Below, one piece after another: positions 1 to 29,588 of a stretch of DNA of 35,868 nucleotides. Below the pieces are notes generated by a model that was not told where the DNA came from, did no database searches, and saw only the letters and a program-made list of their open reading frames with translations. The translations under genes were made by a program, and so were the position numbers. The DNA is taken from the NCBI GenBank assembly GCA_009691305.1, contig SICS01000010.1, positions 1 through 35,868 of the forward strand. The letters run 5' to 3'. Position 1 is the first letter of the stretch. Every line of letters starts with the position of its first letter. The stretch is from Candidatus Peribacteria bacterium (GTDB lineage: Bacteria > Patescibacteriota > Gracilibacteria > Peribacterales > Peribacteraceae).

Positions 1-1518
1 TACGCCTCGCTGATCACCGACGTGGTGAAGAACGGGAAACAGGCGATCCTTCTTGTGCCCGAGATCTTGCTGACCGAGAACGTGATCGACCGCTTTGAGC
101 AACTCTTGCCACGCGACCGCATCGCCGTCCTCCACAGCCGCCTGAAACCGGGACAGCGCAAAGAAGAGTGGAAGCGCATCCACCGTGGCGAGGTGAGCCT
201 TGTGATCGGTTCGCGCAGTGCGCTCTTCGCTCCGCTCCACCAGCTTGGGCTCATCATCATCGACGAAGAGCATGAGTGGACCTACAAGAACGAACAGACA
301 CCGCGCTACCATGCGCGGGAGACTGCTGAAGCGCTCTGCCGACATGCGGGCGCGAAACTGGTCCTCGGTAGTGCGACACCATCGCTGGAGTCCTGGGCGA
401 GGGCAAAATCTGAAATGATTGGAGGAGCGGGCTTTCTGCCCGCGGGCACCGCAGCCAGAAAGGCTGCTCCCCGTTACCATCTAGCGCGCCTCCCCGACCG
501 CTACGGAAGCAATGCGCTACCCACTGTACGGATCGTCGATCTGGCACAGACAGAATTTGGCTCCCAGTACCCGTTTTCACAGGAACTGATCACGGCGATT
601 GATGAACGTCTCAAGAAGAAAGAGCAGTGCGTCCTATTCCTCAACCGCAGAGGCATGGCGAGCGCTCTGCTGTGCATGCAGTGCCGCCGACGCGTGATCT
701 CGCCCGAATCACAACTCCCCTTCACTGTGCATCATCGAGCAGACGGCACACCGTACTTGGTCGACCACAGCACCGGGACGACGGGTGCCGTGCCCGCACA
801 TTGCCCCCACTGCGCGAGCGCAGAGCTACGAGAAGTGGGAGCCGGCACACAGCGGATTGAATCGATCCTTCAGAGAATCTTCCCACGAGCGCGATTGCTG
901 CGTGCGGATACAGACACGCTGGAGACACCGGAGCAGATGCGTGCACTACTCCACAAGATGAAGAACGACGGAGCAGACATTCTGCTCGGCACACAGACGG
1001 TCGTGAAAGGCCTCGACCTGCCCAACGTGACACTTGCGGCCGTGTTGATCGCCGATATCGGCCTCTCACTGCCCCACTTTCGCGCGGGCGAGCGCATCCT
1101 GCAATTGCTCACCCAGCTCACCGGACGCAGCGGCCGCGCAAAGCCAGGTGAGGTGATTATTCAGACGTTCCGGCCGGATGCACCCGAGGTGGTCGCCGCA
1201 GCCAAGCACGAGACAGAGCGGTACCTGGAAGACGAACTGAAGATGCGGACACACGCCGGATATCCGCCTGTGACAAGTATGATTCGCATCCTTCTGCGCG
1301 GGCCCGATGCCGAGTCGCGCGCGAAGAAACTGCAGGCAGAACTGCTGAACGCAAACGCACGCTCAACGGAGCAGACAAAAATCTCGCGCGCACCGACTCT
1401 CTTCGGAGGCGGACGCGAGTGGCATATTCTTCTGCGAGGTCTCAACCCGCGAAGCTTGCTGGAACATATCAACAGGAACGAGATCGTCATTGATGTCGAC
1501 CCGATGGAGACGTTGTAG
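1..1518 (+). CDS. priA: Primosomal protein N' (PriA helicase), 5' end outside window
   Basis: Reading frame is open from base 1; DEEHEWTYKNEQTPRYHARE, LVLGSATPSLES, FLNRRGMAS, GTQTVVKGLDLPNVTLAAV and QLTGRSGRAKPGEVIIQT helicase motifs. Confidence 0.95.
   Translation, partial: YASLITDVVKNGKQAILLVPEILLTENVIDRFEQLLPRDRIAVLHSRLKPGQRKEEWKRIHRGEVSLVIGSRSALFAPLHQLGLIIIDEEHEWTYKNEQTPRYHARETAEALCRHAGAKLVLGSATPSLESWARAKSEMIGGAGFLPAGTAARKAAPRYHLARLPDRYGSNALPTVRIVDLAQTEFGSQYPFSQELITAIDERLKKKEQCVLFLNRRGMASALLCMQCRRRVISPESQLPFTVHHRADGTPYLVDHSTGTTGAVPAHCPHCASAELREVGAGTQRIESILQRIFPRARLLRADTDTLETPEQMRALLHKMKNDGADILLGTQTVVKGLDLPNVTLAAVLIADIGLSLPHFRAGERILQLLTQLTGRSGRAKPGEVIIQTFRPDAPEVVAAAKHETERYLEDELKMRTHAGYPPVTSMIRILLRGPDAESRAKKLQAELLNANARSTEQTKISRAPTLFGGGREWHILLRGLNPRSLLEHINRNEIVIDVDPMETL
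427..467. repeat. Twin-hairpin REP-like element inside priA
   Basis: GCGGGC-TTTCT-GCCCGC and GCAGCC-AGAAA-GGCTGC; the two loops are reverse complements. Confidence 0.75.
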
Positions 1519-1608
1519 CTCCGCTTGACGGGAAAGCGCTCCGTACGGACGACACTCTGGCAGGAATTTCGACGGATCTGTAGAGTTTTGGATAATTTCC
1601 CCTCCGCT

Positions 1609-2202
1609 ATGCACTATCACAAGTATGCAGCCGAGCTTCTCGGCACTTTCACCCTCACGCTCGTCGTGTGGCTTTCGGTCACGCTCGATGTCCCGTTCGC
1701 CACGCCGATGGCTGCTGCTCTGACGCTGGGCCTTTTCGTGTACACCGTCGGCGGCATCAGCGGCTCTCACCTCAACCCCGCCGTCACGATCGGCATGCTG
1801 AGCGTGAACAAGATCAAGACCAATGACGCGGTCATGTACATCGTGTGCCAACTCGCGGGCGCAGTCCTCGCCATGACGGTCGCTCGGATGATGAGCGGAC
1901 AGATGGCTCCCCTCGCCTACGCCACAACCCTGTCTTCCGGCGTCGCCGAGGCCATTGGCGCCTTCTTCTTGGCATTCGCCGTGATGAGCGCGACCATGCA
2001 GAAAGTTCAGCCAGCCGCTGCAGGACTCGTGGTTGGCGGTTCCCTGCTCCTTGGCGTCTATATCGCCTTCCCCTTCAGCAACGCGATCCTCAACCCGGCT
2101 GTCGCGCTGGGCGTCAACGCTTTCGGCCGCATGGAGATCTTCGGCCCGATTGTCGGCGCAGTGTGTGGCGCGTGGGCACGGAAGTCGCTGGATGGGAAGT
2201 GA
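1609..2202 (+). CDS. MIP-family aquaporin/glycerol facilitator-like channel
   Basis: Two half-helix motifs SGSHLNPAVT and NAILNPAVALG; multiple TM segments; start at MHYHKYAAELLG. Confidence 0.9.
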   Translation: MHYHKYAAELLGTFTLTLVVWLSVTLDVPFATPMAAALTLGLFVYTVGGISGSHLNPAVTIGMLSVNKIKTNDAVMYIVCQLAGAVLAMTVARMMSGQMAPLAYATTLSSGVAEAIGAFFLAFAVMSATMQKVQPAAAGLVVGGSLLLGVYIAFPFSNAILNPAVALGVNAFGRMEIFGPIVGAVCGAWARKSLDGK

Positions 2203-2209
2203 TCGTCAA

Positions 2210-2258
2210 CAGCGCGCGTCTTCGACGCGCGACGCCGCAGGTCGAAGACCAGCGGCTA
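2210..2258. repeat. Twin-hairpin REP-like element (TTC/GAA loops)
   Basis: CGCGCGTC-TTC-GACGCGCG followed by GCCGCAGGTC-GAA-GACCAGCGGC, just after the aquaporin stop. Confidence 0.75.
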
Positions 2259-2711
2259 TCTATTACGTAAATAATGCAGCGCAATCCCCGCGGCAACTGC
2301 CACGTTCAGTGATTCCTTTTTCCCGAGCATCGGGATCTTGATCACGGACTGCGCAACATCAAGGATTTCCTGAGGAACCCCGGAGAGTTCATGGCCGACG
2401 ACCACACACATCTTCTCGTGCGGCGTGAATGTGGTGAGGTCGACGGCATCAGCAGTGAGTTCTAAAGGGACGATCGACCAGCCGTCTGCCTTCAGCTTGG
2501 TGACAACGTCTATCGGATCTTCCGCATGCTCCCACGGCACGGTCTCCTCGGCACCGAGTGCTGTCTTCGTGATCTCCTTGCGCGGAGGTGTGCCTGTGTA
2601 ACCGGTCAGATAGATTTTCTCGACGTTGAACGCATCGCACGTACGGAAGAACGAGCCGACGTTCCAAAGCGAGCGCACGTTGTAGGCCAGGAGTCGAATC
2701 TTCCGTTTCAT
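2256..2711 (-). CDS. TrmH/SpoU-family RNA 2'-O-methyltransferase
   Basis: NVGSFFRTCDAFNVEKIYLTG, VVVGHELSGVP, KIPMLGKKESLNVAVAAGIALH SpoU motifs; ATGA overlap with the upstream gene. Confidence 0.9.
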   Translation of the reverse strand: MKRKIRLLAYNVRSLWNVGSFFRTCDAFNVEKIYLTGYTGTPPRKEITKTALGAEETVPWEHAEDPIDVVTKLKADGWSIVPLELTADAVDLTTFTPHEKMCVVVGHELSGVPQEILDVAQSVIKIPMLGKKESLNVAVAAGIALHYLRNR

Positions 2712-3922
2712 ACGGAGAGGCGCTCGAGCACGCTCGCATGCGGGTTCGCGAAGACTTCGAGGAGTTTTATTGAACACAATTCTTGTTCGGAAATTCCCTC
2801 TATTCCATAAGCAATTCCGGTCTCAGTCCCCTGCCCCAGTGATGCCGCTCCGGTGTCCGGAATATCGCGACGGATGAGCACAGTCCGTTTGCCGATAAAT
2901 TCGGTGCCATCGTTTCCCTGCTTAATGAACGCGCGTTCCTTATTTGCATTGAACAACGTGAGGTCAGCGAGGACAGCCTTCACCTGCTTCTCCGGAACGC
3001 ACAAATATTTCCACTGCTTGAGCCGCAGAGACGGCGCAATCCTCCGCGCTGCCTGCTCCACCGTCCGCTCTTCGTTGTTCGTGATGATGGTCTCGATGAA
3101 GATTTCGGGATTCTGTACAGAGCGAACGGGAAGCGTGACCGGAGCATCAACATCTTTCTTTGATATCATTGATTTCTTTGACGTCCTTGATTTCATAAGC
3201 CAGCTCTTCATCGAGGCAAAATACGCATCCCCATTCCCCGGCGCTCTCTCCGGATGCGGCATCAACGCGATCACGTTCCCCTGAGGATTGCAGACACCCG
3301 CAATGGCGAGCATCGACCCGTTCGGTGTCACAACGGGATCCTCACTGATCTTCCCCTCGGCATCACAGTACGAGAAGGCAATCTGATCATTCTTCTTCAA
3401 CTCTTCCATCAAATCTTTATCCTGCGTGGTAAATCGACCCTCCCCGTGCGCGATAGGGATCTGCATGACGCCCTCCCAGTTACTCGTCGCACAGCGATCC
3501 TTGGAACACGAAGGCGTGATCCAGATCCACTCACTCAGCAGCGGCAACCCGCGTACACCGTCCTTCGTCGTGATGGCATTACGCGCGAGACACATCTGGA
3601 GATTCTGTCCATTCGGGATCAATCCGCTCTCAACAAGTATCTGCGCGCCATTGCAGATGCCGATGACGACTTTTCCCTCCTCAGCTTCGGATGCGATGAA
3701 TTCCATCAGCGGATCACGCGCGGCAACCATGCCGCTCCGGCCACGGTCTTCGTAGGAGAAACCCCCTGGGATGAAATAACCGTCGACGTCCTTCAAAATC
3801 GCACGATCATCATTCCATCGGAAGAACACCGGCTCCATGCCCACCCTCCGGATCACGCTCATCGACTCGACCTCCCCATTGTTTCCCGGAAACGAGACGA
3901 TGGCGATACGGGGGGTCTTCAT
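2708..3922 (-). CDS. purQ: PurQ-like phosphoribosylformylglycinamidine synthase glutaminase with an extra ~150-aa C-terminal region
   Basis: IVSFPGNNGEVES, PGGFSYEDRGRSG, VIGICNGAQILVESGLIP, ALMPHPERA; C-terminal region not recognised. Confidence 0.8.
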   Translation of the reverse strand: MKTPRIAIVSFPGNNGEVESMSVIRRVGMEPVFFRWNDDRAILKDVDGYFIPGGFSYEDRGRSGMVAARDPLMEFIASEAEEGKVVIGICNGAQILVESGLIPNGQNLQMCLARNAITTKDGVRGLPLLSEWIWITPSCSKDRCATSNWEGVMQIPIAHGEGRFTTQDKDLMEELKKNDQIAFSYCDAEGKISEDPVVTPNGSMLAIAGVCNPQGNVIALMPHPERAPGNGDAYFASMKSWLMKSRTSKKSMISKKDVDAPVTLPVRSVQNPEIFIETIITNNEERTVEQAARRIAPSLRLKQWKYLCVPEKQVKAVLADLTLFNANKERAFIKQGNDGTEFIGKRTVLIRRDIPDTGAASLGQGTETGIAYGIEGISEQELCSIKLLEVFANPHASVLERLSV

Positions 3923-3937
3923 GATTTGAGTATAGCA

Positions 3938-4010
3938 GCGGCCCTTCGTGGCCGCGGCATGATTCCGCGCCCTTCCACGGGCGCGAAAATACGCAGCCGT
4001 GGAAGGCTGC
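3938..4010. repeat. Triple-hairpin REP-like element
   Basis: GCGGCC-CTTCGT-GGCCGC; CGCGCCC-TTCCAC-GGGCGCG; GCAGCC-GTGGAA-GGCTGC; the last two loops are perfect reverse complements. Confidence 0.75.
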
Positions 4011-4036
4011 GCTGGTATATGTGCAAGGTCATTGAA

Positions 4037-4576
4037 TCAGACCTTCATCACCTCCTCTTCCTTCTTCTTCGCCAATTCCGCGATCTTGCCATTGTAGTCG
4101 TCGACGGACTTCTGGAGCTGCTCGTTGAGCGTTTCCTTCACGTCCTCGTCCTTCTCCGGCTTGATGGCATCGTGGGCGACCTGGCGGTGTTTGCGCAGCG
4201 CAACACGCGACTCCTCAGCCAGTTGATGGACTACCTTTTGGAGATGTTTGCGGCGTTCCTCCGTCATGGAAGGCAACGTCACGCGAATGACGATACCGTC
4301 ATTCACCGGAGATCCACCCAAGTCAGCCAGCTGTAGGGCTTTCTCAACTGCGGCAAGGATCCCGCGATCCCATGGCTGGATCACAAGCGAACGCTGGTCC
4401 ACGCTGATGCCGCAGAGCGAGCGGAGGTCCTGTTTCTGCCCGTACGCGTCGATCATGATGTGCTCGATGAGTGCAGCGTTGGCGCGCCCCGTCTGCAATT
4501 TGCTGTACTCCGACTTGAGATTGCTAAGAACTTTCTCCCCATCAGTAATAAAGGTTGCAAGACGTGGATCGGACAT
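4037..4576 (-). CDS. frr: Ribosome recycling factor
   Basis: LKSEYSKLQTGRANAALIEHIMIDAYG, DLGGSPVNDGIVIRVTLPSMTEERRKHLQKVV. Confidence 0.95.
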   Translation of the reverse strand: MSDPRLATFITDGEKVLSNLKSEYSKLQTGRANAALIEHIMIDAYGQKQDLRSLCGISVDQRSLVIQPWDRGILAAVEKALQLADLGGSPVNDGIVIRVTLPSMTEERRKHLQKVVHQLAEESRVALRKHRQVAHDAIKPEKDEDVKETLNEQLQKSVDDYNGKIAELAKKKEEEVMKV

Positions 4577-5018
4577 AGGAGATAGGAATTAGGAATTAGA
4601 ACTAAGATTTGTGATAAGACTATTGAGCATTTTCATAACTTCTTCCAGCAAAGCATCTACTTTACTAAAATTCAAGCCTCGTCCGAATGATAAACGTTTA
4701 ACAATAAGTACTTGGGTTTCAAGTTCGGAGCCAGATCCAAATGCAATTCGTACACACCGACGAAATTCCTGCTTCGACGAGTGTTTCCTTCCTTCAGCAA
4801 TATTGCTGGGAATAGAAACAACGCTTCTTCTCATTTGTGCGGTGAGCCCAAATTGTTCAGAATGCGGAAATTTTTCCGTCAGATCGTATATGAGTTCTAC
4901 CAGATCCATCGCTTTTTGCCAGACGATTAAATCTTTGAAGGTCTTGATAGACATAGGACAACGATTATACACCCGCTGCTAATTCCTAACTCCTAACTCC
5001 TAACTCCTAATTCCTAAT
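4577..5018 (-). mobile_element. IVS-like insertion between pyrH and frr, bracketed by AT-rich inverted repeats
   Basis: Left GGAATTAGGAATTAG (approx. 4585-4600) against right CTAATTCCTAACTCCTAACTCCTAACTCCTAATTCCTAA (approx. 4979-5017); AT-richer than the flanks. Confidence 0.55.
4589..4954 (-). CDS. Four-helix bundle protein (S23/IVS-encoded family)
   Basis: FKDLIVWQKAMDLVELIYDLTEKFPHSEQFGLTAQMRRSVVSIPSNIAEGRKHSSKQEFRRCVRIAFGSGSELETQ. Confidence 0.9.
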   Translation of the reverse strand: MSIKTFKDLIVWQKAMDLVELIYDLTEKFPHSEQFGLTAQMRRSVVSIPSNIAEGRKHSSKQEFRRCVRIAFGSGSELETQVLIVKRLSFGRGLNFSKVDALLEEVMKMLNSLITNLSSNS

Positions 5019-5715
5019 GAACGACGGTTCCAATACGTTCCCCTTTTGCAGCCTTGAGCAACGCGCCTGACGTAAAGAAGTTGAAGACGACAATCGGGAG
5101 CTTCTGGTCCTGGCAGAGGCTGAATGCGGCCTGATCCATTACCTGGAGGCGCTGTTCGATGGCCTGCTGGAACGTCAGTTCGTCGTACTTCTTTGCACTG
5201 CGGAACTTCTTGGGGTCTTTGTCGTACACGCCGTCGACGTTGGTCGCCTTGAGGATCACATCGCAGCCCAGTTCGAGTGCGCGGAGTGCGGCAGCGGAAT
5301 CTGTCGTGAAGTAGGGGTTGCCAGTGCCACCCGCGCAGATGACGACGCGGCCTTTTTCGAGATGACGCTGTGCCCGGCGCTTGATAAAGGGCTCTGCCAG
5401 CTGTGGCACGTCGACCGCAGAGAGCACGCGTGACTCAATCTTCGCCGCCTCCAGAGCCGACTGCAGCGCGACCGAGTTCATAATCGTCGCCAGCATGCCC
5501 ATTGCGTCACTCACCGTCCGCTCGATCCCTGAATCTTTCGTATCACGGAATCTCCAAATATTCCCGCCTCCGACCACCACAACGACCTGTGCGATGTCGG
5601 CAACCGCTGCGATCTGCTTCGCCACGTGCGTGAGCGTTGGTTTATCGATACCGAATGCGTGCTTACCGGAAAACACTTCGCCCGAGAGCTTGAGCATGAT
5701 TCGCTTGTAGCGCAT
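5014..5715 (-). CDS. pyrH: Uridylate kinase
   Basis: RIMLKLSGEVFSG, VVVVVGGGNIWRFRD, DAMGMLATIMNSVALQSALE, DVILKATNVDGVYDKDPKK. Confidence 0.95.
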   Translation of the reverse strand: MRYKRIMLKLSGEVFSGKHAFGIDKPTLTHVAKQIAAVADIAQVVVVVGGGNIWRFRDTKDSGIERTVSDAMGMLATIMNSVALQSALEAAKIESRVLSAVDVPQLAEPFIKRRAQRHLEKGRVVICAGGTGNPYFTTDSAAALRALELGCDVILKATNVDGVYDKDPKKFRSAKKYDELTFQQAIEQRLQVMDQAAFSLCQDQKLPIVVFNFFTSGALLKAAKGERIGTVVH

Positions 5716-5813
5716 AGGAAGGTGGATGGGAGGGAGTATGTGGCCTGTTGATCAGACAGAGTATACTCAAATGTCGTCAGCAAATCCATGCTCATGATAG
5801 AATGGACGATAGT

Positions 5814-5889
5814 GCCCCCGTAGCTCAGTGGATAGAGCAGCGGGTTTCTAACCCGTTGGCCGTAGGTTCAATTCCTACCGGGGGTACCA
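5814..5889 (+). tRNA. tRNA-Arg (anticodon TCT), CCA encoded
   Basis: GCCCCCG acceptor, anticodon arm GCGGG-TTTCTAA-CCCGT, T arm GTAGG-TTCAATT-CCTAC, 3' ACCA. Confidence 0.93.
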
Positions 5890-5948
5890 TACTGGATGAT
5901 CAGCGTACAGCACGATTAGCGAGTACCATCATTTTCCTCCCTCATAGT

Positions 5949-6593
5949 ATGCCCTTCCCCGCCTGGCTCCCCGATGTGTATAAACCGATGGTCACGTACC
6001 TGCTCGAGCTGGGACTCGTCAGTATGTTCTACATGTGGATCTTCGTGAACCTCGCGATGCTCCTTGGTATGGCATCCAGTTCGCTGAAGACGCGCGAAAA
6101 CATCGAGACGGTGTTCACCATGACTGCCGGACATTATTTCCTAACGGCAATGGCGTCTATTGTGGTCATCGCGGCTGCAAAAGCGGAACCGCAGATGTGG
6201 CTTGTGTATACGCTCATCGGTGCATGTATGGTGTGGGGTACGATGGCCTCTGAGTTGCACGAGGACATCGGCGGCACGGTTCCGGAGGAGCGGATGCGGA
6301 TGCGGCATTTTTTTCTCACACGCTTCTCCCTGCAGGCTGCATGGATATTTCTGTTCGTCCTTTGCGCCCAGGGCAATATTTCCATCACGAACGGGGTTCT
6401 GACGTGGTTGGACGATCTGTTTCCCGTGCTTCTGGAGTTTCCATTTGCCGTTGGCATCATTTTCGCTTTGATCAGTGTATTCTCGCTACTTTGGGTATTC
6501 TTTCGAGCCTTGCGGTCGACCTTTGGCGTTTGTATTCAAGTCCTGCGGCTGTATGTGAGGACGTCTGCGCTTCCGGAAAAACGCGCATCGTGA
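5949..6593 (+). CDS. Multi-pass membrane protein of unknown function
   Basis: Start MPFPAWLPDVYKPMVTYLLELG chosen because the longer ORF runs through the tRNA; about four hydrophobic segments. Confidence 0.65.
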   Translation: MPFPAWLPDVYKPMVTYLLELGLVSMFYMWIFVNLAMLLGMASSSLKTRENIETVFTMTAGHYFLTAMASIVVIAAAKAEPQMWLVYTLIGACMVWGTMASELHEDIGGTVPEERMRMRHFFLTRFSLQAAWIFLFVLCAQGNISITNGVLTWLDDLFPVLLEFPFAVGIIFALISVFSLLWVFFRALRSTFGVCIQVLRLYVRTSALPEKRAS

Positions 6594-6606
6594 CAGACTG
6601 GAGGCG

Positions 6607-8298
6607 ATGTTGCAGACCGTGTTCGGAGGCAAACGATGGCTGTTGATGCTGCTCCTCGTCTTGGCAGCGTTTGGAACATACAAGGATTCGCTCCACAACG
6701 CGTTCGCCATTTGGGACGACGACACGCTCGTGTACGAAAACCCACTGACCCAAAGGATCACACTCGAAAACGTCGCTGGTGCGTTCACCTCGTACGATCC
6801 GGAACTGTATGTGCCGGCGACGATTGTCAGTTTTCAGATTGAACACGCGCTGTTCGGGTTCAACGCGTTCAATTTCCATCTGGATAACCTTCTTCTGCAT
6901 ATCATCGCCGCATGCCTGGGCATGCTCCTGCTGGAAAGACTGGGATTACGGCAAGGGACGGCATTCTTCGCCGCGCTCCTCTTTACAGTCCATCCGTTGA
7001 ATACGGAAGCGGTGGCGTGGGTCAGCGCACGCAAAGACCTGTTTGCCGGCGTCTTTTCGCTCTCTTCGGCTTTGGCGTATCTATCGTATCGCGATGGCAA
7101 TCGACGGTTCCTCTGGATCAGTATTGGGTTCTTCGTGCTCGCACTTCTCTCAAAGCCTGTCTCGATCGTGCTGCCATTTGCCTTGCTCCTCCTCGACTGG
7201 AAGGAAACCGGCAAGATCCGCCGCGCCGACTGGACGGGAAAGATCCCATTCTTCGCGCTGTCCGCGATCTTTCTGATCATCGGCATCTATGGAAAACAGC
7301 GCAACCTCGCCGCACTCTCACTATTGGAGACGTTGCTGCTCGCCGTAAAGAGCACGGTGTTCTCGTTGGAGAAATTTTTTCTGCCAACGGCCCTCAGCCC
7401 GATCTATCTGCAGACAAATCCCATCAGCATAACCCAGTCGGAGTTCCTTGTACCGGTTGGCATCGTGATCACAGCATTGGCAATAATCTTTCTCATACCG
7501 AAAAAGGGCGGAAAATGCTCTGCTCCTGTAAAAGCAATCATGTTTGCGTCTATGTGGTACGCAGTATTCCTCGTGCCCTCCTTCGCCAACTTCGACAAAG
7601 ACCATTCTGTGTACTTCTTCTCCGACCGGTACATCTACCTGTCGCAGATCGGCATCTTCTTTTTGCTCGGCTTCGCGATCGACACGTACGTCCTTACGGA
7701 TCACGGGAAGGTAAGGCGCGCGGCATTGATGCTGATGACAGCGGGCATCGCTGGCTTGTTCTCCTGGGGCGCGCATGCACAGAGCCTGCTCTGGAAGGAC
7801 AGCGAGACGCTGTACCGCGACTCACTACGCAAGAACGACCGCAGTGTGATCATGCATTACAATCTTGGCTTGCTTGAACAGAAGAGGGGAAATCGGGATG
7901 CGGCGTTCGCGGAGTATCAGAAGGTCCTCTCACTCGACCCGGATGACTGGAAGACACTGACGAACCTCGGCATGTGGTACAACGAGGAAGGTGACCGGAC
8001 AAAAGCGATGGAATACCTGCAGCGGGCCGCGGATATCGCACCCACGTCCCCGCTCGTCCACAGCAACATCGGCGTCGTACTGATGGACCAAGGGGACACC
8101 GACGGGGCCATCGCGGCATTCCGCAAGGCGATCGTCGCCAGTGAGCGTTTCGCCCAGGCGCATATCAACCTCGCCGCCGCGCTTGGGAGGAAGGAGCTCT
8201 ACGAGGAGGCGCTGCGCGAATACAAGCGCGCGTACGAACTCGTCCCGGAACTACTGAACGACCTACCGGACGTGCGCAGAGCCTTGGAATCGTTCTGA
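6607..8298 (+). CDS. TMTC-like membrane protein with C-terminal TPR repeats
   Basis: FAIWDDDTLVYENP, HPLNTEAVAWVSARKDL, multi-TM, then HYNLGLLEQKRGNRDAAFAEYQKVLSLDPDDWKTLTNLG TPRs; GGAGG SD upstream. Confidence 0.85.
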   Translation: MLQTVFGGKRWLLMLLLVLAAFGTYKDSLHNAFAIWDDDTLVYENPLTQRITLENVAGAFTSYDPELYVPATIVSFQIEHALFGFNAFNFHLDNLLLHIIAACLGMLLLERLGLRQGTAFFAALLFTVHPLNTEAVAWVSARKDLFAGVFSLSSALAYLSYRDGNRRFLWISIGFFVLALLSKPVSIVLPFALLLLDWKETGKIRRADWTGKIPFFALSAIFLIIGIYGKQRNLAALSLLETLLLAVKSTVFSLEKFFLPTALSPIYLQTNPISITQSEFLVPVGIVITALAIIFLIPKKGGKCSAPVKAIMFASMWYAVFLVPSFANFDKDHSVYFFSDRYIYLSQIGIFFLLGFAIDTYVLTDHGKVRRAALMLMTAGIAGLFSWGAHAQSLLWKDSETLYRDSLRKNDRSVIMHYNLGLLEQKRGNRDAAFAEYQKVLSLDPDDWKTLTNLGMWYNEEGDRTKAMEYLQRAADIAPTSPLVHSNIGVVLMDQGDTDGAIAAFRKAIVASERFAQAHINLAAALGRKELYEEALREYKRAYELVPELLNDLPDVRRALESF

Positions 8299-9822: not shown

Positions 9823-9840
9823 GCGCCCGCGAAGGGGCGC
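9823..9840. repeat. Single hairpin resembling one arm of the twin-hairpin family
   Basis: GCGCCC-GCGAAG-GGGCGC. Confidence 0.5.
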
Positions 9841-10281: not shown

Positions 10282-10323
10282 GCGCGCGTTCGGCGCGCGT
10301 CATTCCGCAGGCCGAACGCCTGC
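10282..10323. repeat. Twin-hairpin REP-like element (GTTCG/CGAAC loops)
   Basis: GCGCGC-GTTCG-GCGCGC and GCAGGC-CGAAC-GCCTGC; loops exact reverse complements. Confidence 0.75.
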
Positions 10324-15108: not shown

Positions 15109-15156
15109 GGCGGGCATACTTGCCCGCCATGATGACCGCAGGCAGGTATGCCTGCG
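15109..15156. repeat. Twin-hairpin REP-like element (TACT/GGTA loops)
   Basis: GGCGGGCA-TACT-TGCCCGCC and CGCAGGCA-GGTA-TGCCTGCG between convergent genes. Confidence 0.7.
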
Positions 15157-15710: not shown

Positions 15711-15756
15711 GCCGCAGGTCTTCGACCTGCGGACCGCGCGTCGAAGACGCGCGGCT
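15711..15756. repeat. Twin-hairpin REP-like element (TTC/GAA loops)
   Basis: GCCGCAGGTC-TTC-GACCTGCGG and CCGCGCGTC-GAA-GACGCGCGGC. Confidence 0.8.
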
Positions 15757-17173: not shown

Positions 17174-17233
17174 AGCGCAGGTCTTCGACCTGCGGCGAAT
17201 GAATCCGGTTTCGCACGTCGAAGACGTGCGCTA
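17174..17233. repeat. Twin-hairpin REP-like element (TTC/GAA loops)
   Basis: GCAGGTC-TTC-GACCTGC and GCACGTC-GAA-GACGTGC abutting the gnd upstream region. Confidence 0.75.
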
Positions 17234-18752: not shown

Positions 18753-19403
18753 ATGACATTGTTTCGGAATCGATATCGGAATGAATCGGCACGAATGCCG
18801 GGGCATGATTATGCCTCACCCGGATGGTATTTCGTCACCATTTGTACCGGAGACCGAATTGGTTATTTCGGTACGGTACGAAACGGATACGTGTGCCTAT
18901 CAAATATCGGATCGATTGTTGCGGATGAATGGATGAAAACGCCGATAATCCGTCCATGTGTGCAATTGGATGATTGGATCATCATGCCGAACCACATGCA
19001 CGGGATTATTCGCATCACGGAAATGGGGACGCCCAGGCGGGGCGCGGGAAATGCATATCCGTTGTCGGACGTTATCGACGCGCCCCATGTGGTCCGCAAA
19101 TTATCCGTAGGGACGCCCCGGCGGGGCGTCCCTACGATGTCGGATGCGTCGCCGGACGCGTCGGATATATCCATGGACGGAATTGCGCCGCACGCGGCCG
19201 GACGGAATGCACATCCATCATGGAAACCCGGTTGTTTGGGATCCATCATCAACCAATTTAAAACCGTTTGCACAAAACGTATCCGCGCGGCGGGATTTGT
19301 CGATTTCGCCTGACAACCACGGTTTCACGACGTCATCATCCGCGACGCCGAATCCCTGGATCGTATCCAACGTTACATCATCGATAACCCGCGAAACGGG
19401 TAG
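18753..19403 (+). pseudogene. REP-associated tyrosine transposase (RAYT / Y1_Tnp, IS200-like) interrupted by an in-frame TGA
   Basis: MPGHDYASPGWYFVTICTGDR, WIIMPNHMHGIIRI, LGSIINQFKTVCTKRI; frame continues after TGA as QPRFHDVIIRDAESLDRIQRYIIDNPRNG before TAG. Confidence 0.8.
19107..19135. repeat. Perfect palindrome of family C (GTAGGGACGCCCC-GGC-GGGGCGTCCCTAC) inside the RAYT gene
   Basis: 13-bp perfect stem with 3-nt loop; a related degenerate copy GGGGACGCCCAGGCGGGGCG lies at about 19024-19044. Confidence 0.8.
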
Positions 19404-21811: not shown

Positions 21812-21820
21812 TGCTATAAT
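21812..21820 (+). promoter_or_regulatory. Extended -10 promoter-like TGCTATAAT
   Basis: TGC-TATAAT upstream of the ATG at 21838. Confidence 0.5.
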
Positions 21821-21905
21821 TTGAGGATTCTATCGACATGAAAAAACAAACACTTCATTCAGGGCTATACACGCAAATTCTTTCCTCTAAAGGGGTGAAG
21901 AAGCG

Positions 21906-22240: not shown

Positions 22241-22305
22241 CCGGCGGTGGAACAGACGCTCCCCCTTTCGGTGCCTGCCGCGGACAGAACTGTTTCCATC
22301 CCCCC

Positions 22306-22740
22306 GTGGGACCCGTGACCCACCCGGCCGCCGCATCGTCATCGCGTAGATCCACCCCGCCGACATCGGCCATCCCAGCACCCGGCACCAAACCACTGCC
22401 ACCGTTCATCGAGGGCTTGCCCGACTTGATCGCCAACGGTTGGAATCTTCTCGGCATCAGGATCACCAGCGGCACACCGTTGCGCTTCTTCGGCGTCGTC
22501 GATACCGCGCCGCAGGTGGCCTTGGGCTGCACGGAACAACTGCTCGCGATCCGGGTAATGCTGGGAGCGATCGTGCAGATCCTCATCAGTCTGATAGGTC
22601 TTCTATTTGCACTGGCCGTGTTGCTCTTCTTGGCAAGGAACCGTGGCGGGAGATACGACTTCAGCTACATTTTCCTGCCGTTGCTCTTCCTGCGCCGTCG
22701 GAAGAAGAAGGAAAAGAAACGCAAGCCATCACACAAGTGA
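22306..22740 (+). CDS. Hypothetical protein with one TM and a Lys/Arg-rich tail; N-terminus uncertain
   Basis: PFIEGLPDLIANGWNLLGIRIT...VMLGAIVQILISLIGLLFALAVLLFLARNRGGR..RRRKKKEKKRK. Confidence 0.4.
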   Translation: MGPVTHPAAASSSRRSTPPTSAIPAPGTKPLPPFIEGLPDLIANGWNLLGIRITSGTPLRFFGVVDTAPQVALGCTEQLLAIRVMLGAIVQILISLIGLLFALAVLLFLARNRGGRYDFSYIFLPLLFLRRRKKKEKKRKPSHK

Positions 22741-22788
22741 GGACAACGCTTTGTCCTTTGCCTCACATTTGCTAGGATGTGTACCACT

Positions 22789-23835
22789 ATGATCCGAATC
22801 AAAACGTTTGTTGCCGCGGTGTGCATGTTCTTGATGGCAGCCGCAGCAATCCCAAGCCCGGCATTTGCTGCGGGATCCTTTTCCGACGTGTCGGAGAAGA
22901 GTCCGGAGTTCGCCGCAGTAGAGTTCCTGAAGGCCAAAGGCATCATGCAGGGATACCCCGACGGGACGTATAAGCCGAAGCAGACAGTGACTCGTGCCGA
23001 AGCGGTGAAGATGCTCGTGTCCACGAGGCTGTCGCCGGAAGAGATCCAAACCTTCACGAAACGCTCCTACACGGATGTCCCGACAGATGCGTGGTACCGG
23101 CCCTATGTGGAAGCGGCATTCCAGAAGCTCGGCTTGATCGACGGTCCGCCCAAAACGACAACGTTCAACGGCGGCCGCACAATCCAACGCGCGGAATTCC
23201 TCAAGTTGCTGTTTAAATCGCAGGGCATCGACACGAACGCGTACAGCGAAATCGTGCTGCCGCTCGCATTCGACGTCACCGATACCACCGCGTGGTACTA
23301 CCCGCTGATGCGCTACGCCGTCTCCACGATGATCATCCACGTCGAACCGGATGGAAAACTCCACCCCGACAGTGAACTGACGCGCGGCGAAGTGGCGCTG
23401 GAGATCTATTACCTGGCGATGTACCAGGCGGGCAAGCGCACGCAGGCCGGCCTCTCTATGGAGGAGAGCGACCTCGTGAACACCCTCCAACTCCTGGAAC
23501 AGAAGCAGTTCGCGGCGGCGGAGATGGCTTCCGCACGCGCACTCCTCGCGGCGCGTGGCGCGCTCACGAGCAAGCCGACGACAGCCATCGTCCAGGCAGC
23601 CGTGAAGATCGCCGAAGCGTTCCGCGGTTTGGTGCGCGCATACGTTGCCGGCACCGAAGGCCGGCTGGATGACGTCCTCGCTCTCAGCAAGGAAGCGTGG
23701 GGACTCGCAGAGAGGGCGCAGCAACTCAGCCCTAGCCTCAAGGACCTCGCAGTGCGCGTACAGACCATTGCGAAAGGAATGGCCGACCAAGCGCGGGAGA
23801 TGATCAAAGGAGGGACAGGGGCACCAGCGCAATGA
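22789..23835 (+). CDS. Secreted S-layer homology (SLH) domain protein
   Basis: Signal peptide; FSDVSEKSPEFAAVEFLKAKGIMQGYPDGTYKPKQTVTRAEAVKML and further SLH repeats. Confidence 0.9.
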   Translation: MIRIKTFVAAVCMFLMAAAAIPSPAFAAGSFSDVSEKSPEFAAVEFLKAKGIMQGYPDGTYKPKQTVTRAEAVKMLVSTRLSPEEIQTFTKRSYTDVPTDAWYRPYVEAAFQKLGLIDGPPKTTTFNGGRTIQRAEFLKLLFKSQGIDTNAYSEIVLPLAFDVTDTTAWYYPLMRYAVSTMIIHVEPDGKLHPDSELTRGEVALEIYYLAMYQAGKRTQAGLSMEESDLVNTLQLLEQKQFAAAEMASARALLAARGALTSKPTTAIVQAAVKIAEAFRGLVRAYVAGTEGRLDDVLALSKEAWGLAERAQQLSPSLKDLAVRVQTIAKGMADQAREMIKGGTGAPAQ

Positions 23836-23865
23836 TACTTGTGGAATCGCGGCTGCGCTCAGAGT

Positions 23866-23947
23866 CATTCGACTCGTCTAAGACAAAGAATGGCCCGAGT
23901 CCGCCGAGACGGACGAGGACCATGAGCGAGCGAAGCGAGTCGAATGG
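23866..23947. repeat. Inverted repeat on the 3' side of tRNA-Ser(UGA)
   Basis: CATTCGACTCG (23866-23876) and CGAGTCGAATG (23936-23946), with inner hairpin GTCCG-ccgaga-CGGAC. Confidence 0.6.
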
Positions 23948-24035
23948 CGGAGAGGGTGGGATTCGAACCCACGAACCCATTGCTGGGTTACCTGATTTCA
24001 AGTCAGGCGCCATAGACCACTCGGCCACCTCTCCG
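23946..24035 (-). tRNA. tRNA-Ser (anticodon TGA), CCA encoded
   Basis: GGAGAGG/CCTCTCC acceptor, anticodon loop CTTGAAA, long variable arm, G-CCA. Confidence 0.93.
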
Positions 24036-24086
24036 GGGATAGTGTACGGAATTGAAGGAAAATCTGCTACAATTGACCGGATACCA

Positions 24087-25103
24087 ATGCCTCTTTTGTC
24101 CCACCTCTTCCGGCTTCTTTCATTGGCGTTGCCAGTGATCGCTTTGTTCTCTATTGAGGGCGTGTCGGCCGCGGTATTCCCCGATGTGCCCAAGGACCAT
24201 TTCGCGCTGGAGGCGGTCAACTACCTGACGGAGAAAAGCGTGCTGACGGGCTACGCGGACGGCACCTTCCGACCCGACCAGAAAGTCAACCGCGCGGAGG
24301 CACTCAAGATCATCGCATCCGCATTTGTCCCTGTGAGCGATACCGTGCGCCTGAAGAGCAAGGATTTCACGGACGTGCCCGATGACATCTGGTACCTGCC
24401 GTCCATCGAGTGGGCAATGTCAAAGAAAGTGATCGACGGTCCGCCCAAGAAGACGGCCTTCCTGCCCACGCAGGCCGTGACGAAAGCGGAATTCCTGAAG
24501 ATGCTCTTTGCGGCAAACGGCGTCGATGCCAACGCGTTCGGCGACATCAAGCTGCCGCTCTCCTCCGACGTCGCAAACACCAAAGAATGGTCCTACCCGC
24601 ACCTGCGGTATGCAGTCGCGAGCGGCACGACGGAAATTTCCGACGGCGGGCTCTTTGGCCCCACCCGTGAACTGACGCGCGCAGATGTCTCTCTCCTCCT
24701 CTACCGTTTCACGCTCTACCGCAGCGGCCAGCGGACGCAGGATCTACTCACGTTGACGCACGAAGACGTGGAGAATGTCATCACGGCCCTCTCGAAAGGG
24801 AAGGCGACAGAAGCCGAGTACGCTTCGGCACGCGCAATCTTACTAGCGCGCGCGGCCGTACTGACGGAACCGGATGCCGTGGTGGTGAAAGTCGCCGTGA
24901 AGATTGCGGAGGGGTACCGCGCCCTTACGCGTGCGTACCGTGCGGGGCTCAACGGCGACGTGAACACTGTCGTGAAGCTCTCGGCGGACGCGGCGACGTT
25001 GGCTGGCCAGGCGCGGAGGTTGAGCCCGGAGAGTAAATCGTTGGCGGATCAATTGGATAAGTACAGCAGGAGTTTCTCTGACCAGGCGAAGAAGAAAATG
25101 TAA
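24087..25103 (+). CDS. Secreted SLH domain protein, paralogue of 22789..23835
   Basis: FPDVPKDHFALEAVNYLTEKSVLTGYADGTFRPDQKVNRAEALKII; same architecture and C-terminal helical region as upstream neighbour; longer ORF start lies across the tRNA. Confidence 0.9.
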   Translation: MPLLSHLFRLLSLALPVIALFSIEGVSAAVFPDVPKDHFALEAVNYLTEKSVLTGYADGTFRPDQKVNRAEALKIIASAFVPVSDTVRLKSKDFTDVPDDIWYLPSIEWAMSKKVIDGPPKKTAFLPTQAVTKAEFLKMLFAANGVDANAFGDIKLPLSSDVANTKEWSYPHLRYAVASGTTEISDGGLFGPTRELTRADVSLLLYRFTLYRSGQRTQDLLTLTHEDVENVITALSKGKATEAEYASARAILLARAAVLTEPDAVVVKVAVKIAEGYRALTRAYRAGLNGDVNTVVKLSADAATLAGQARRLSPESKSLADQLDKYSRSFSDQAKKKM

Positions 25104-25121
25104 GGGGTATAGTCTAACGTG

Positions 25122-25490
25122 ATGGAACCCATCCGTTTTCATGCACGCGTTATTCCCGGCCGAGCCCGCGGTAGGAAGCTCGGCGTGCCAACATTGAACT
25201 TTGAACTGGCTGATGTCCCTGCAGTGCTTGACGAGGGACTCTATGCAGGACGCGTGACGGTGGATGGCACCACGCACCTGGCGAGCATCCACTACGGGTT
25301 CCGTCCCACCTTTGATGATTCGAAGACATGCGAGGCGCATCTGATCGACATCACGCTGCCCTCTTCCCCAGCAGAAACTGATGTGGAGGTGATCGAGTTT
25401 TTGAGGCCCATCACCAAATTCGAATCCGCCGAGGCATTAGCAGCCCAAATGCAGAAGGACATTCAAAAGACGAGAGTGATTCTCTCGTAG
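25122..25490 (+). CDS. Riboflavin kinase domain protein (stand-alone)
   Basis: RGRKLGVPTLNFEL, LDEGLYAGRVTVDGTTHLASIHYGFRPTFDD, EAHLIDIT; no FAD synthetase domain. Confidence 0.8.
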   Translation: MEPIRFHARVIPGRARGRKLGVPTLNFELADVPAVLDEGLYAGRVTVDGTTHLASIHYGFRPTFDDSKTCEAHLIDITLPSSPAETDVEVIEFLRPITKFESAEALAAQMQKDIQKTRVILS

Positions 25491-25530
25491 TGCCGGTTCG
25501 CGAACCGCCACGACGAGTTATACTTCTGGT

Positions 25531-26859
25531 ATGAGAGTTCTCGGCGTCATCAAAGGCCTGTTGCCCAACCGCTCGCCGGTGCGCCTGGCATGGCATCGGT
25601 TGAAGGCACTCGCAGCAGCTGTGCGGTACCGATTCCCCGCACGCAGCCTAATAGTGATCGGCATCACAGGCACCGACGGCAAGACCACGACGGTCGGCAT
25701 GACGGCGCATATTTTGCATGAAGCAGGAATCCCGGTCGGTGCGCTCTCCACAAGCTTCTTCCGTATCCGCGGCAAATCCTGGGACAACCCCACGCACAAG
25801 ACGTCGATCTCGCCGTTCGCAATGCAGCGGTTCCTTCGGCAGTGCGCGGATGAGGGTTGCACGCACGCAGTGGTCGAGTGTTCGTCGCACGGCCTGGTGC
25901 AGCACCGCAACGACTTCCTCTGGCCGCGCGTCACCGCGATCACAAACATTTCCCCCGAACATCTCGACTACCACGGGACGATGGAGCAATACCGCCACGA
26001 CAAAAGCATCCTCTTCCAGATGCTCCGGAAGGACGGCGTCAGCGTGCTGAACGCCGACGATGAGACGTTCCAGGAGTACACACTGCTCCCAGCACAATGG
26101 CGCATCGCCTGGTCGGCATCCCGTTCGTTTAGCCATCCGATGGGCGGGCGCGACTGCGCGATCTGGACGGAGAACGTGGCAGTGACGCCCGCAGGATCCT
26201 CTGCCACGGTACTCAGCAATGTGGAAGAAGAGACGCGGAACCTGCAGCTGCACATCCCCGGCGGCTTTAATATTGAGAATGCGCTCTGCGCGATCAGCTG
26301 CGCCCATGCGGTGGGGGTGGAGATTGCCCTGGGTGTGAAGACTCTCGCGGATTTCCGCGGAGTGCCCGGGCGCATGGAGAGCATCAACACAGGGCAACCC
26401 TTCGCCGTCTACGTCGACTTCACGATCACGCCGAATGCCTACGAGAAGACACTCGCTACTGTGCGCCAGACCCTCGCACCCGGAGCCAGGCTCCTCGTGC
26501 TCACGGGGAGTTGTGGCAACAGGATGCGGGAAAAACGCCCGATGATCGGCAAGATCGTCAGTGAGATGGCCGATGTGGTGGTCGTCAGTGAGGATGAAAC
26601 AGTGACCGAAGATCCGCTGAAGGTGATCGACGAAGTCTGGGCGGGAGTCGACCAAGCGCGGTGCGAAGCCCACAAGATCCCCGACCGCCGCGAGGCTATC
26701 CGGTTCCTCTTCAAGAATGCCCATCCCGGTGACGCGGTGCTCCTCTGTGGTATGGGCGCGTGCTCGACCATGCAGACGAGGGAAGGGTTACGAAAATGGG
26801 ATGAACGAGAGGTTGCGAAGGACTTGCTGAAAGAAATAGGGAGGAATATTGGCGTATGA
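25531..26859 (+). CDS. murE: Mur ligase, MurE-like
   Basis: GITGTDGKTTTVGMTAHIL, TNISPEHLDYHGTMEQY, FRGVPGRMESINTGQPFAVYVDFTITPNAYEKTL. Confidence 0.88.
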   Translation: MRVLGVIKGLLPNRSPVRLAWHRLKALAAAVRYRFPARSLIVIGITGTDGKTTTVGMTAHILHEAGIPVGALSTSFFRIRGKSWDNPTHKTSISPFAMQRFLRQCADEGCTHAVVECSSHGLVQHRNDFLWPRVTAITNISPEHLDYHGTMEQYRHDKSILFQMLRKDGVSVLNADDETFQEYTLLPAQWRIAWSASRSFSHPMGGRDCAIWTENVAVTPAGSSATVLSNVEEETRNLQLHIPGGFNIENALCAISCAHAVGVEIALGVKTLADFRGVPGRMESINTGQPFAVYVDFTITPNAYEKTLATVRQTLAPGARLLVLTGSCGNRMREKRPMIGKIVSEMADVVVVSEDETVTEDPLKVIDEVWAGVDQARCEAHKIPDRREAIRFLFKNAHPGDAVLLCGMGACSTMQTREGLRKWDEREVAKDLLKEIGRNIGV

Positions 26860-26864
26860 TGGTA

Positions 26865-26906
26865 AGATGGCTGGATGGTAAACACCATCGAACCATCCAA
26901 CCATCT
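26865..26906. repeat. Hairpin covering the predicted rnhB start
   Basis: AGATGGCTGGATGGT...AACCATCCAACCATCT, about 14 of 16 positions paired. Confidence 0.6.
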
Positions 26907-27585
26907 CACAATCCGTAAAATCTTTACAGCCATAGACTCTGCTACAACTATTGCAGGCATAGATGAAGTCGGCCGTGGCGCAGTTGCCGGTCCAGTGGTT
27001 GCGTGCGCATGCGTCATCGCGACTCCCCTCTTCCGACGTAGAAGAAGTTTTTCGTGCTGGTCACCGTTCGAGAAAAAAGCGGATGACGACGTGCTCATCG
27101 CGGACAGCAAACTGCTGAGTCCCCATGAGCGGGAAATTTCCTCCGCATGGATCCGTTCCGCCTGTGCATTCGGCGTGGGTGCCGTGAGCGCATTTGTCAT
27201 TGATAAACGGGGAATTCTCTATTCGACGAACCAAGCGATGCTGTTGGCGCTTGAGGATCTTCGTTCAAAAACCTCCGTGCAATCACTACTCGTCGACGGC
27301 CGGGATCGTTTTCACTTTCCCCTCCCCCATCAGTCCATCATCCGTGGAGACCAATCGGAACCTGCCATCGCCGCTGCCTCCATTGTTGCAAAAGTCTTCC
27401 GCGATGGATTGATGCGGGAGTATGCAAAAGACTTTCCTCTCTTCGGCTTTGAGCATCACAAAGGATACGGGGCACCGGTTCACCTTGCAGCGATCAGCGA
27501 ACATGGGCCGTGCACGTTGCATCGGCGGAGTTTCCTGCGAGCACACCTCGAGAATCAGACTCTTCCTATTGTACACAATTTTTGA
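26875..27585 (+). CDS. rnhB: Ribonuclease HII (start uncertain)
   Basis: IAGIDEVGRGAVAGPVVACACVI, DSKLLSPHERE, SIVAKVFRD, HKGYGAPVHLAAISEHGP. Confidence 0.93.
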   Translation: MVNTIEPSNHLTIRKIFTAIDSATTIAGIDEVGRGAVAGPVVACACVIATPLFRRRRSFSCWSPFEKKADDDVLIADSKLLSPHEREISSAWIRSACAFGVGAVSAFVIDKRGILYSTNQAMLLALEDLRSKTSVQSLLVDGRDRFHFPLPHQSIIRGDQSEPAIAAASIVAKVFRDGLMREYAKDFPLFGFEHHKGYGAPVHLAAISEHGPCTLHRRSFLRAHLENQTLPIVHNF

Positions 27586-27608
27586 TCGACTTTTTCCTCT
27601 TCTCTTAG

Positions 27609-28394
27609 TCATTTTCTAATCCTGTTCATCATACATATACCTACGCCGACAACGATGAGGGGTAGCGTCAGGAGCTGACCACGCGTGAGGAAGATCCCGA
27701 AAATGTCTGAGAGCGGATACTGCTGCTGGCGGATGAATTCGAGCAGGAAGCGTCCGACACCGTAGAGGATCAAAAATGCGGCGGCCGTGCACCCGACGCG
27801 TCGCAGGTTTCCTGTGGTGATGCGAAGGTGCCAAAAACAAATCGTGGCGATCAGGAGATCCTTCCCGATGGCGTACAGCTGAATGGGGTGGCGCAGGCCG
27901 TCGGCGCCAGGGAACATCATCCCCCACGGGAGCGTCGTGACCGTGCCGTAGAGTTCCTGGTTGATGAAGTTGCCCAGCCGTCCGAGTGCGAGGCCGATAG
28001 CGACGGGGACGATGATGACATCTGCGAGTGCTAGCAGGCTGATCGAGTGTTTGCGACAGAAGAGCGACAGCACGAGCACGACGCCGATGAGACCGCCGTG
28101 GAACGACATTCCGCCTTCCCACACGGCAAAAATCTTGAGTGGATCGACCGAGAAGTATGTCGGCTCGTAGAAGAGCACGAACCCCAACCGCCCACCGATA
28201 ATCACCCCAATGACGGACCAGGAGAGCAACGACATCCACGTGTCCCGTGTCAGCGCGAGGTCCCTATACCGCTGGAGACGCGGGAGAACCCATGCGGCGA
28301 TCAGGAATCCCAGAAGATAGAGGAGGCCGTACCAGTGGATCTGGAAGCCGAAGAGGTCGATTGCGACGGGACGGGATGGGAATAGATGAATCAC
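27609..28394 (-). CDS. lgt: Prolipoprotein diacylglyceryl transferase (GTG start)
   Basis: IHWYGLLYLLGFL, VWEGGMSFHGGLIG, GLALGRLGNFINQELYG. Confidence 0.95.
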   Translation of the reverse strand: MIHLFPSRPVAIDLFGFQIHWYGLLYLLGFLIAAWVLPRLQRYRDLALTRDTWMSLLSWSVIGVIIGGRLGFVLFYEPTYFSVDPLKIFAVWEGGMSFHGGLIGVVLVLSLFCRKHSISLLALADVIIVPVAIGLALGRLGNFINQELYGTVTTLPWGMMFPGADGLRHPIQLYAIGKDLLIATICFWHLRITTGNLRRVGCTAAAFLILYGVGRFLLEFIRQQQYPLSDIFGIFLTRGQLLTLPLIVVGVGICMMNRIRK

Positions 28395-28449
28395 GCAGAC
28401 AGTCTAGCCCGCTCCGATTGAAGAATCACGAGGCGGAGCGCTTTCTTTG

Positions 28450-28482
28450 CTCCTTTCTTTGTCGCCCTGACAAAGAAAGGAG
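28450..28482 (+). promoter_or_regulatory. Perfect hairpin sequestering part of the tsaD Shine-Dalgarno region
   Basis: CTCCTTTCTTTGTC-gccct-GACAAAGAAAGGAG then AGGAGAATGTCCCC-ATG. Confidence 0.6.
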
Positions 28483-28496
28483 AGGAGAATGTCCCC

Positions 28497-29588
28497 ATGC
28501 GTATTCTTGGTATTGAGACTTCCTGTGATGAAACGTCTGTTGCAGTGGTCCTCGACGGCATTCACGTCCAGTCGAACGTGATTTCCAGCTCCCGCGCGAC
28601 ATTTGAAAAGCTTGCAGGTGTGATCCCCGAGCAGGCGGCGCGGATGCAGATCGAATGCATCACGCCTGTTTTGCAGGAAGCCCTGATTGAAGCCAAAATC
28701 ACGATGTCCGACATCGATGCAATCGCTGTGACCCGCGGCCCCGGCTTGCTCGGCTCTCTCCTCGTCGGAACCGTGACGGCGCGTGCGATTGCCTCAATCC
28801 ACAAGAAGCCACTCATCGGAGTCCATCACACGCTGGGGCACCTATCATCGACATGGCTGGAAGGTGGCCATGAAATCACTTCGTACGGACGCCCGGGCGG
28901 GGCCTCACTACCCCTTTTTCCACTCCTGACTCTCTCCGCCTCCGGCGGCCATACAGACCTCTGGCATCGCGCTTCCCATACGCGGGGGAGGCTCCTGGGC
29001 CGAACACGTGACGATGCGGCGGGCGAAGCGTTCGACAAGGGCGCGTCGATGCTCGGACTCCCCTACCCCGGTGGCCCATCGATCCAGAAAGCTGCTGAGG
29101 GCGGTGATGTGAAGGCGTATGACTTTCCTCTTCCGCTCCATGCAGAAGACACATTGGATTTTAGTTTCTCGGGATTGAAGACGTCGTTGAAATATTTGTT
29201 GCGGGATATTAGCCGCGCGTCTTCGACACGCGGTCCGCAGGTCGAAGACCTGCGGCTAACAATTGATATGGCCGCATCCTTTCAACACGCCATCTGCCGC
29301 CATCTCGTTGACCGCGTTGAGCGCGCGATCACGCGCCATCCCGACGTGAAGGAAATCCATCTCGTCGGCGGCGTGTCAGCGAATATTCATCTCCGCAACG
29401 TCATGGGTGACCTCTGTAGAAAGAAAGGCGTGACCGTCCGCGTGCCAAAGAATTTGAGCTACTGCACAGACAATGCCGCGATGATTGCGGCTGCAGGATT
29501 CTTCCTACACCAAGAACTCGGAGATGACGTGTTCAACACATTCCAGACGGAGGCGTCCATTCCGCTGGAAGCAGTCATCAAGGAGTAA
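28497..29588 (+). CDS. tsaD: tRNA N6-adenosine threonylcarbamoyltransferase
   Basis: RILGIETSCDETSVAVV, AVTRGPGLLGSLLVG, LSASGGHTDLW, GEAFDKGASMLGLPYPGGPSIQKAA, FSFSGLKTSL, LVGGVSANIHLR. Confidence 0.96.
   Translation: MRILGIETSCDETSVAVVLDGIHVQSNVISSSRATFEKLAGVIPEQAARMQIECITPVLQEALIEAKITMSDIDAIAVTRGPGLLGSLLVGTVTARAIASIHKKPLIGVHHTLGHLSSTWLEGGHEITSYGRPGGASLPLFPLLTLSASGGHTDLWHRASHTRGRLLGRTRDDAAGEAFDKGASMLGLPYPGGPSIQKAAEGGDVKAYDFPLPLHAEDTLDFSFSGLKTSLKYLLRDISRASSTRGPQVEDLRLTIDMAASFQHAICRHLVDRVERAITRHPDVKEIHLVGGVSANIHLRNVMGDLCRKKGVTVRVPKNLSYCTDNAAMIAAAGFFLHQELGDDVFNTFQTEASIPLEAVIKE
28883..28911. repeat. Degenerate family C palindrome inside tsaD
   Basis: GTACGGACGCCCGGGCGGGGCCTCACTAC matches 25 of 29 positions of the perfect palindrome at 19107-19135. 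Confidence 0.65.
29211..29258. repeat. Twin-hairpin REP-like element inside tsaD
   Basis: AGCCGCGCGTCTTCGACACGCGGTCCGCAGGTCGAAGACCTGCGGCT; near-identical to the reverse complement of 15711-15756. Confidence 0.8.

What the first reader, a model, noticed from the sequence alone, without database searches (positions are those of the whole stretch)
427..29258. Twin-hairpin REP-like family with copy-specific but mutually complementary loops
Eight elements (427-467, 2210-2258, 3938-4010, 10282-10323, 15109-15156, 15711-15756, 17174-17233, 29211-29258) have two adjacent GC-rich hairpins. One usually has a GCG-type stem and the other a GCAG-type stem. Loop pairs differ between copies: TTTCT/AGAAA, TTC/GAA (four copies), TTCCAC/GTGGAA, GTTCG/CGAAC, TACT/GGTA (one G-U). 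Within every copy the two loops are reverse complements. Part of the extended complementarity follows trivially from shared stem bases, but the loops vary in sequence and length and still match. This suggests a maintained loop-loop (kissing) or alternative long-stem structure, or a copying mechanism that generates hairpin 2 from hairpin 1. REP/BIME elements paired with RAYTs are known; this loop-covariation rule is, as far as I know, not a standard description.
Basis: seen in the sequence. Interest (0 to 1): 0.82.

Follow-up and report, generated by a model that had tools for sequence, protein, structure and literature searches.

The report
Inverted REP pairs with transposase-specific loops
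The twin hairpins are short mobile repeats (REPINs) of a tiny-genome Patescibacteria lineage; each loop sequence is probably the address of one particular transposase, so the two loops match because both hairpins belong to the same transposase's family, while their stems, unexpectedly, are always different.

Summary
The eight twin hairpins are real and far above chance. They are REPINs: two REP hairpins in inverted orientation with GNAG-like tags facing outward, in a 1.07 Mb genome of the Ca. Peribacteraceae group (Patescibacteria; placement inferred). The genome carries five REP-associated tyrosine transposases (RAYTs), each with hairpins of its own loop around it (GTTCG, CTTCGT, TTC, TTTCT, ACGG). 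Two further loop families (TACN, TTCCAN) have no RAYT found here, but relatives hold RAYTs with the same loops. Of 83 RAYTs of the family, 44 have complementary loops on their two sides; shuffled partners give 3.4. So loops match within a copy because both arms belong to one RAYT family. Inside families the variable loop base matches no better than chance (3 of 18; 6.7 expected), so maintained loop-loop pairing is not supported. The more telling rule: stems within a twin are never identical (0 of 41; 10.9 expected; 0 of 32 in relatives' loci), whereas distant RAYT-flanking REPs are identical in 19 of 44. Unequal stems make the two-hairpin and long-hairpin folds nearly equal in predicted energy. 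SbcCD, the published suggestion for such heterodimers, was not detected in this genome or 19 relatives. New member of a known kind, with a testable twist.

The parts
427..467 (.). REPIN, family F2 (loop TTTCT), stems GCGGGC / GCAGCC, inside priA (in frame)
   Evidence: insert absent in relatives G002, G003, G004, G005, G006
2213..2254 (.). REPIN, family F1 (loop TTC, core GTC-TTC-GAC), stems CGCGTC / CTGGTC
3938..3955 (+). lone REP, family F4 (loop CTTCGT, tag GCAG)
3967..4010 (.). REPIN, family F6 (loop TTCCAC), stems GCGCCC / GCAGCC
10282..10323 (.). REPIN, family F3 (loop GTTCG), stems GCGCGC / GCAGGC, GGAG tags outward
15109..15156 (.). REPIN, family F5 (loops TACT / TACC), between convergent ORFs
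15712..15754 (.). REPIN, family F1, stems CAGGTC / CGCGTC
17176..17230 (.). REPIN, family F1, stems CAGGTC / CACGTC
29213..29255 (.). REPIN, family F1, stems CGCGTC / CAGGTC, inside tsaD in a variable linker

Best explanation
Each element is a REPIN: two REP hairpins of one family in inverted orientation, non-autonomous DNA moved (inferred) by a RAYT, a single-strand-DNA HUH/Y1 transposase encoded elsewhere in the genome. Each RAYT recognises the tag plus hairpin with its own loop sequence, so the loop is the family address; loops of a twin are complementary only because two same-address REPs face each other. The stems of the two partners must differ (usually one or two pair changes, mostly C-G to G-C). 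Shown: family structure, the association of loop with RAYT, presence/absence of a copy at an orthologous site, and the stem rule. Inferred: loop reading by the protein, transposition itself, and that the stem difference serves to keep the two separate hairpins (the form a RAYT can bind) from being locked into one long hairpin.
For: Five Y1_Tnp genes in the genome; four of five exceed the NCBIfam cut-off for REP-associated tyrosine transposase NF047646, the fifth is just below; best solved relative is E. coli TnpA-REP 4er8. The hairpins around each of the five carry a loop of their own; in L026 one of the two hairpins lies inside the RAYT gene, and around L029 all matching hairpins lie upstream. 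Of 83 RAYTs, 44 have complementary loops on their two sides against 3.4 +/- 1.8 with shuffled partners, maximum 9 in 500 shuffles. Loop classes cluster on the RAYT tree: 23 changes against 36.1, 0 of 200 shuffles as low. Loop families without an own RAYT (TACN, TTCCAN) have RAYTs in relatives with the same loops and similar stems. Stems identical in 0 of 41 twins, expected 10.9 +/- 2.75, 0 of 20,000; mid-stem C/G swap 30 of 30 in four families, random 16.1; relatives' twins 0 of 32 against 19 of 44 for distant RAYT-flanking pairs, P=5e-6; own genome near 0/36 against far 7/12, P=1e-5. DNA energies: long minus twin form -0.4 kcal/mol native, -12.5 if both arms were equal. Insertion in priA, absent in five relatives, with a different REP at that site in a sixth. 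Prior work: loop bases are critical for group 3 TnpA-REP, and reverse-complementing the loop severely impairs cleavage and binding (PMC8266576).
Against: No experiment shows mobility or loop recognition here; loop clustering on the tree would also follow from co-inheritance alone. 39 of 83 RAYTs show no exact two-sided loop match (several differ by one base or have one side missing). The energy balance is a model prediction and follows partly from any one or two mismatches. One priA site is the only clear empty site shown.
Confidence: 0.9

Rival explanations
1. The loops are kept complementary by selection for a loop-loop (kissing) contact or for the long hairpin in DNA or RNA.
For: Loops in a twin are nearly always the same family (50 of 53 adjacent pairs), and the long form is predicted slightly more stable in 25 of 41.
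Against: Partners do not match better than chance at variable loop bases (3 of 18, expected 6.7). Stems differ without exception, which weakens the long form by about 12 kcal/mol. Lone and tandem copies carry the same loops, and so do RAYT-flanking REPs some 500 bp apart.
Confidence: 0.05
2. Unequal-stem twins result from purging of perfect palindromes by a hairpin nuclease (SbcCD) or by replication slippage, not from a need of the transposase. (This competes only with the stem part of the best explanation.)
For: The rule depends on distance: near twins never equal, distant inverted REPs often equal. Published suggestion for REP heterodimers (PMC3733652).
Against: SbcD not detected in this genome or 19 relatives while the same search rings in 13 of 14 control genomes; no SbcC above cut-off, only weak N-terminal matches in some relatives. 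Slippage or another nuclease remains possible.
Confidence: 0.35
3. The two stem types are distinct left and right ends required by the transposase, as in IS200/IS605 elements.
For: Stem types fall into two polarity classes that always pair with each other (30 of 30 in four families).
Against: The two REPs that flank a RAYT gene, the natural left and right ends, have equal stems in 19 of 44; many different stem combinations occur (17 in own twins).
Confidence: 0.15
4. Intrinsic terminators or a known structured RNA.
For: GC-rich hairpins, several between genes.
Against: No T-run after any of the eight on either strand; no Rfam family at gathering score other than three tRNAs elsewhere in the window; two copies lie inside genes.
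Confidence: 0.03

Closest known systems
REPINs of Pseudomonas fluorescens with RAYTs (Bertels and Rainey 2011, PMC3116915)
   Same: Inverted REP doublets; several REP groups in one genome, each tied to its own RAYT; two alternative folds (long hairpin, clover).
   Different: Very small Patescibacteria genome; tag GNAG (mostly GGAG/GCAG); perfect 6-9 bp stems with loops of 3-6 bases; stems within a pair never equal, whereas the SBW25 GI REPIN is described as symmetrical.
Group 3 TnpA-REP systems of Stenotrophomonas maltophilia and Marinomonas (PMC8266576)
   Same: Short perfect palindromes, often several systems per genome, loop bases essential for recognition.
   Different: The known host range is mostly Xanthomonads and Pseudomonads (subclass 2.5 in PMC6006769); loop use here is inferred from genomics only.
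REP heterodimers (Di Nocera et al. 2013, PMC3733652) and E. coli y/z BIMEs
   Same: Preference for unequal partners in a dimer, exclusive in some families; two separate hairpins or one large one possible.
   Different: Here the rule is without exception over several loop families, mostly a mid-stem pair swap with shared loop, in a lineage where SbcCD was not detected.
Rickettsia palindromic elements (recalled from memory, not tested)
   Same: Palindromic repeats inserted in frame inside genes of a small-genome bacterium.
   Different: No RAYT link and no sequence relation tested.

Membership tests
REP/REPIN | short palindrome with 5' GTAG-like tag, many copies per genome | tested here: met
   tags GGAG/GCAG/GTAG/NTAG; 154 REP-like calls in 380 kb against 32 in the control. 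The tag is GNAG-like, not strictly GTAG.
REP/REPIN | two REPs in inverted orientation, tags outward | tested here: met
   42 of 50 adjacent same-family pairs (one of the 42 is a duplicate locus)
REP/REPIN | cognate RAYT flanked by the same REPs | tested here: met
   four of five own RAYTs have two complementary copies (in L026 one of them inside the gene), L029 one-sided only; 44 of 83 RAYTs across the family
REP/REPIN | mobility | tested here: inconclusive
   presence/absence and a different REP at one priA site; no excision or movement assayed
RAYT (NF047646, Y1_Tnp) | HuH motif and catalytic Tyr, family score over cut-off | tested here: met
   PDHxH and YIHxNP in the four aligned own copies; Pfam 5/5, NCBIfam 4/5 over cut-off, one at 74.7 of 80 bits
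RAYT group 3 / subclass 2.5 | short perfect REP, DHxH/WQ/YIxANP signature | tested here: inconclusive
   motifs similar (PDHxH, WQ, YIHxNP) but no tree with reference groups was built
Intrinsic terminator | T-run after the hairpin | tested here: not met

The most novel reading that the evidence does not exclude
In Peribacteraceae the REP loop is a private address read by one RAYT, and the obligate stem difference within each REPIN is selected to hold the twin-hairpin (bindable) and long-hairpin (silent) folds near equal energy: a built-in fold switch that limits transposition, independent of SbcCD.
Probability: 0.3. Interest if true: 0.65.

Novelty: new member of a known kind. Interest (0 to 1): 0.45.

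Why it matters
It explains the apparent loop covariation simply and places a rich RAYT-REP system in a Patescibacteria lineage with very small genomes; I found no paper on this in the held library (limited search). The natural series of about 14 loop classes paired with their transposases is ready material for working out a recognition code. The strict unequal-stem rule in genomes where SbcCD was not detected bears directly on a puzzle the literature calls without obvious explanation (PMC3733652).

Tried and rejected
Kissing/long-stem maintenance: tested on variable loop bases and by folding, not supported. Terminator and Rfam families: negative. A single master REPIN with unequal stems as source of all copies: 17 different stem combinations in own twins speak against it. 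Detection bias against equal-stem twins: the own-genome scan treats each arm separately; no long perfect hairpins masked equal twins in the loci searched, and the same scan found equal-stem twins in another phylum (L291). A covariance model of loop-loop pairing was not built: family membership accounts for the loop match, and within-family variation was tested directly instead. Extra Peribacteria loci gave no new twins, probably because they are largely the same records. The ACGG family scan (F7) is mostly noise: 18 calls against 14 in the control.

Full report
What is there. Each is a pair of GC-rich perfect or near-perfect hairpins separated by a short spacer, with GGAG/GCAG/NTAG-like tags at the outer feet. 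Read in REP sense (tag first), both arms of a twin carry the same loop. The window also holds two lone REPs (3938-3955, 9823-9840).

Host. The window is contig 30 of a 1.07 Mb, 44-contig genome.

RAYTs. Five Y1_Tnp genes lie in this genome, matched by the NCBIfam model for REP-associated tyrosine transposases (four over cut-off, one just below) and by sequence to E. coli TnpA-REP 4er8. Each has hairpins with its own loop around it: GTTCG (L025), ACGG (L026, with one copy inside the gene), CTTCGT (L027), TTC (L028), TTTCT (L029, all upstream). Four of these loops are loops of window elements. Two other loop families, TACN and TTCCAN, have no RAYT found here but do in relatives (L171, L182, L110).

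Loop rule. Across 83 distinct RAYTs, 44 have exactly complementary loops on both sides; re-pairing upstream and downstream sides between loci gives 3.4 +/- 1.8. Several of the rest differ by one loop base. Loop classes cluster on the RAYT tree with repeated switches (23 changes, shuffled 36.1). This RAYT clade, at the threshold used, was seen only in the own family among 288 genomes drawn from the class. In group 3 TnpA-REP enzymes loop bases are known to be essential (PMC8266576), so loop reading by the RAYT is the natural inference.

Loops inside families. In the three families with a variable loop, twin partners agree in 3 of 18 cases against 6.7 expected (P=0.04). A kissing or long-stem constraint predicts the opposite.

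Stem rule. In own-genome twins the inner six stem bases are identical in 0 of 41, against 10.9 expected from random pairing within families; 17 different combinations occur. In families F1, F3, F4, F6 the partners always have opposite C/G polarity at one mid-stem position (30 of 30, random 16.1); that position was chosen after seeing the data. In relatives' RAYT neighbourhoods 0 of 32 near twins are equal, while the two REPs at either side of a RAYT are equal in 19 of 44. In the own genome near inverted pairs are equal in 0 of 36, pairs 100-5000 bases apart in 7 of 12. The effect therefore depends on adjacency. Predicted single-strand DNA energies put the two-hairpin and one-hairpin forms within 0.4 kcal/mol of each other on average, and equal stems would favour the long form by 12.5. 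Heterodimer preference is known in several REP families and was called without obvious explanation, with SbcCD as a suggestion (PMC3733652); SbcD was not detected here or in the 19 relatives searched, and SbcC not above cut-off.

Mobility. The REPIN at 427-467 is an in-frame insert of about 20 codons in priA; G002, G003, G004, G005 and G006 lack it, and G001 has a single REP-like hairpin of the TTC type at the same linker. The copy at 29211-29258 sits in a variable linker of tsaD.

Verdict. A real and well-developed RAYT-REPIN system, a new member of a known kind.

Noticed in passing
window 19106-19136: A 14-bp perfect palindrome with GTAG at both ends (GTAGGGACGCCCC-GGC-GGGGCGTCCCTAC); similar GTAGGGGCG hairpins occur at several places of the genome sample (L052 12746, L057 5216, L061 13176, L063 2186). 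Probably a further, classical GTAG REP family.
   Followed up: partly
L026 1679-1700: A REP hairpin (loop CCGT) lies inside the reading frame of one own RAYT between the HuH and Tyr motifs, a feature described as unique to subclass 2.4 in PMC6006769.
   Followed up: no
L191 (G001), priA linker: A same-genus relative has a different, single REP-like hairpin (TGGGTC.TTC.GACCC) in frame at the site where the window has its F2 REPIN: the linker seems a repeated landing site.
   Followed up: partly
L055 2642-2769: Three same-sense copies of a TACT REP with identical stems in a 54-base tandem array.
   Followed up: no
window 23948-24034 (-): Rfam tRNA match that lies under the long ORF 23832-25103 on the other strand.
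   Followed up: no
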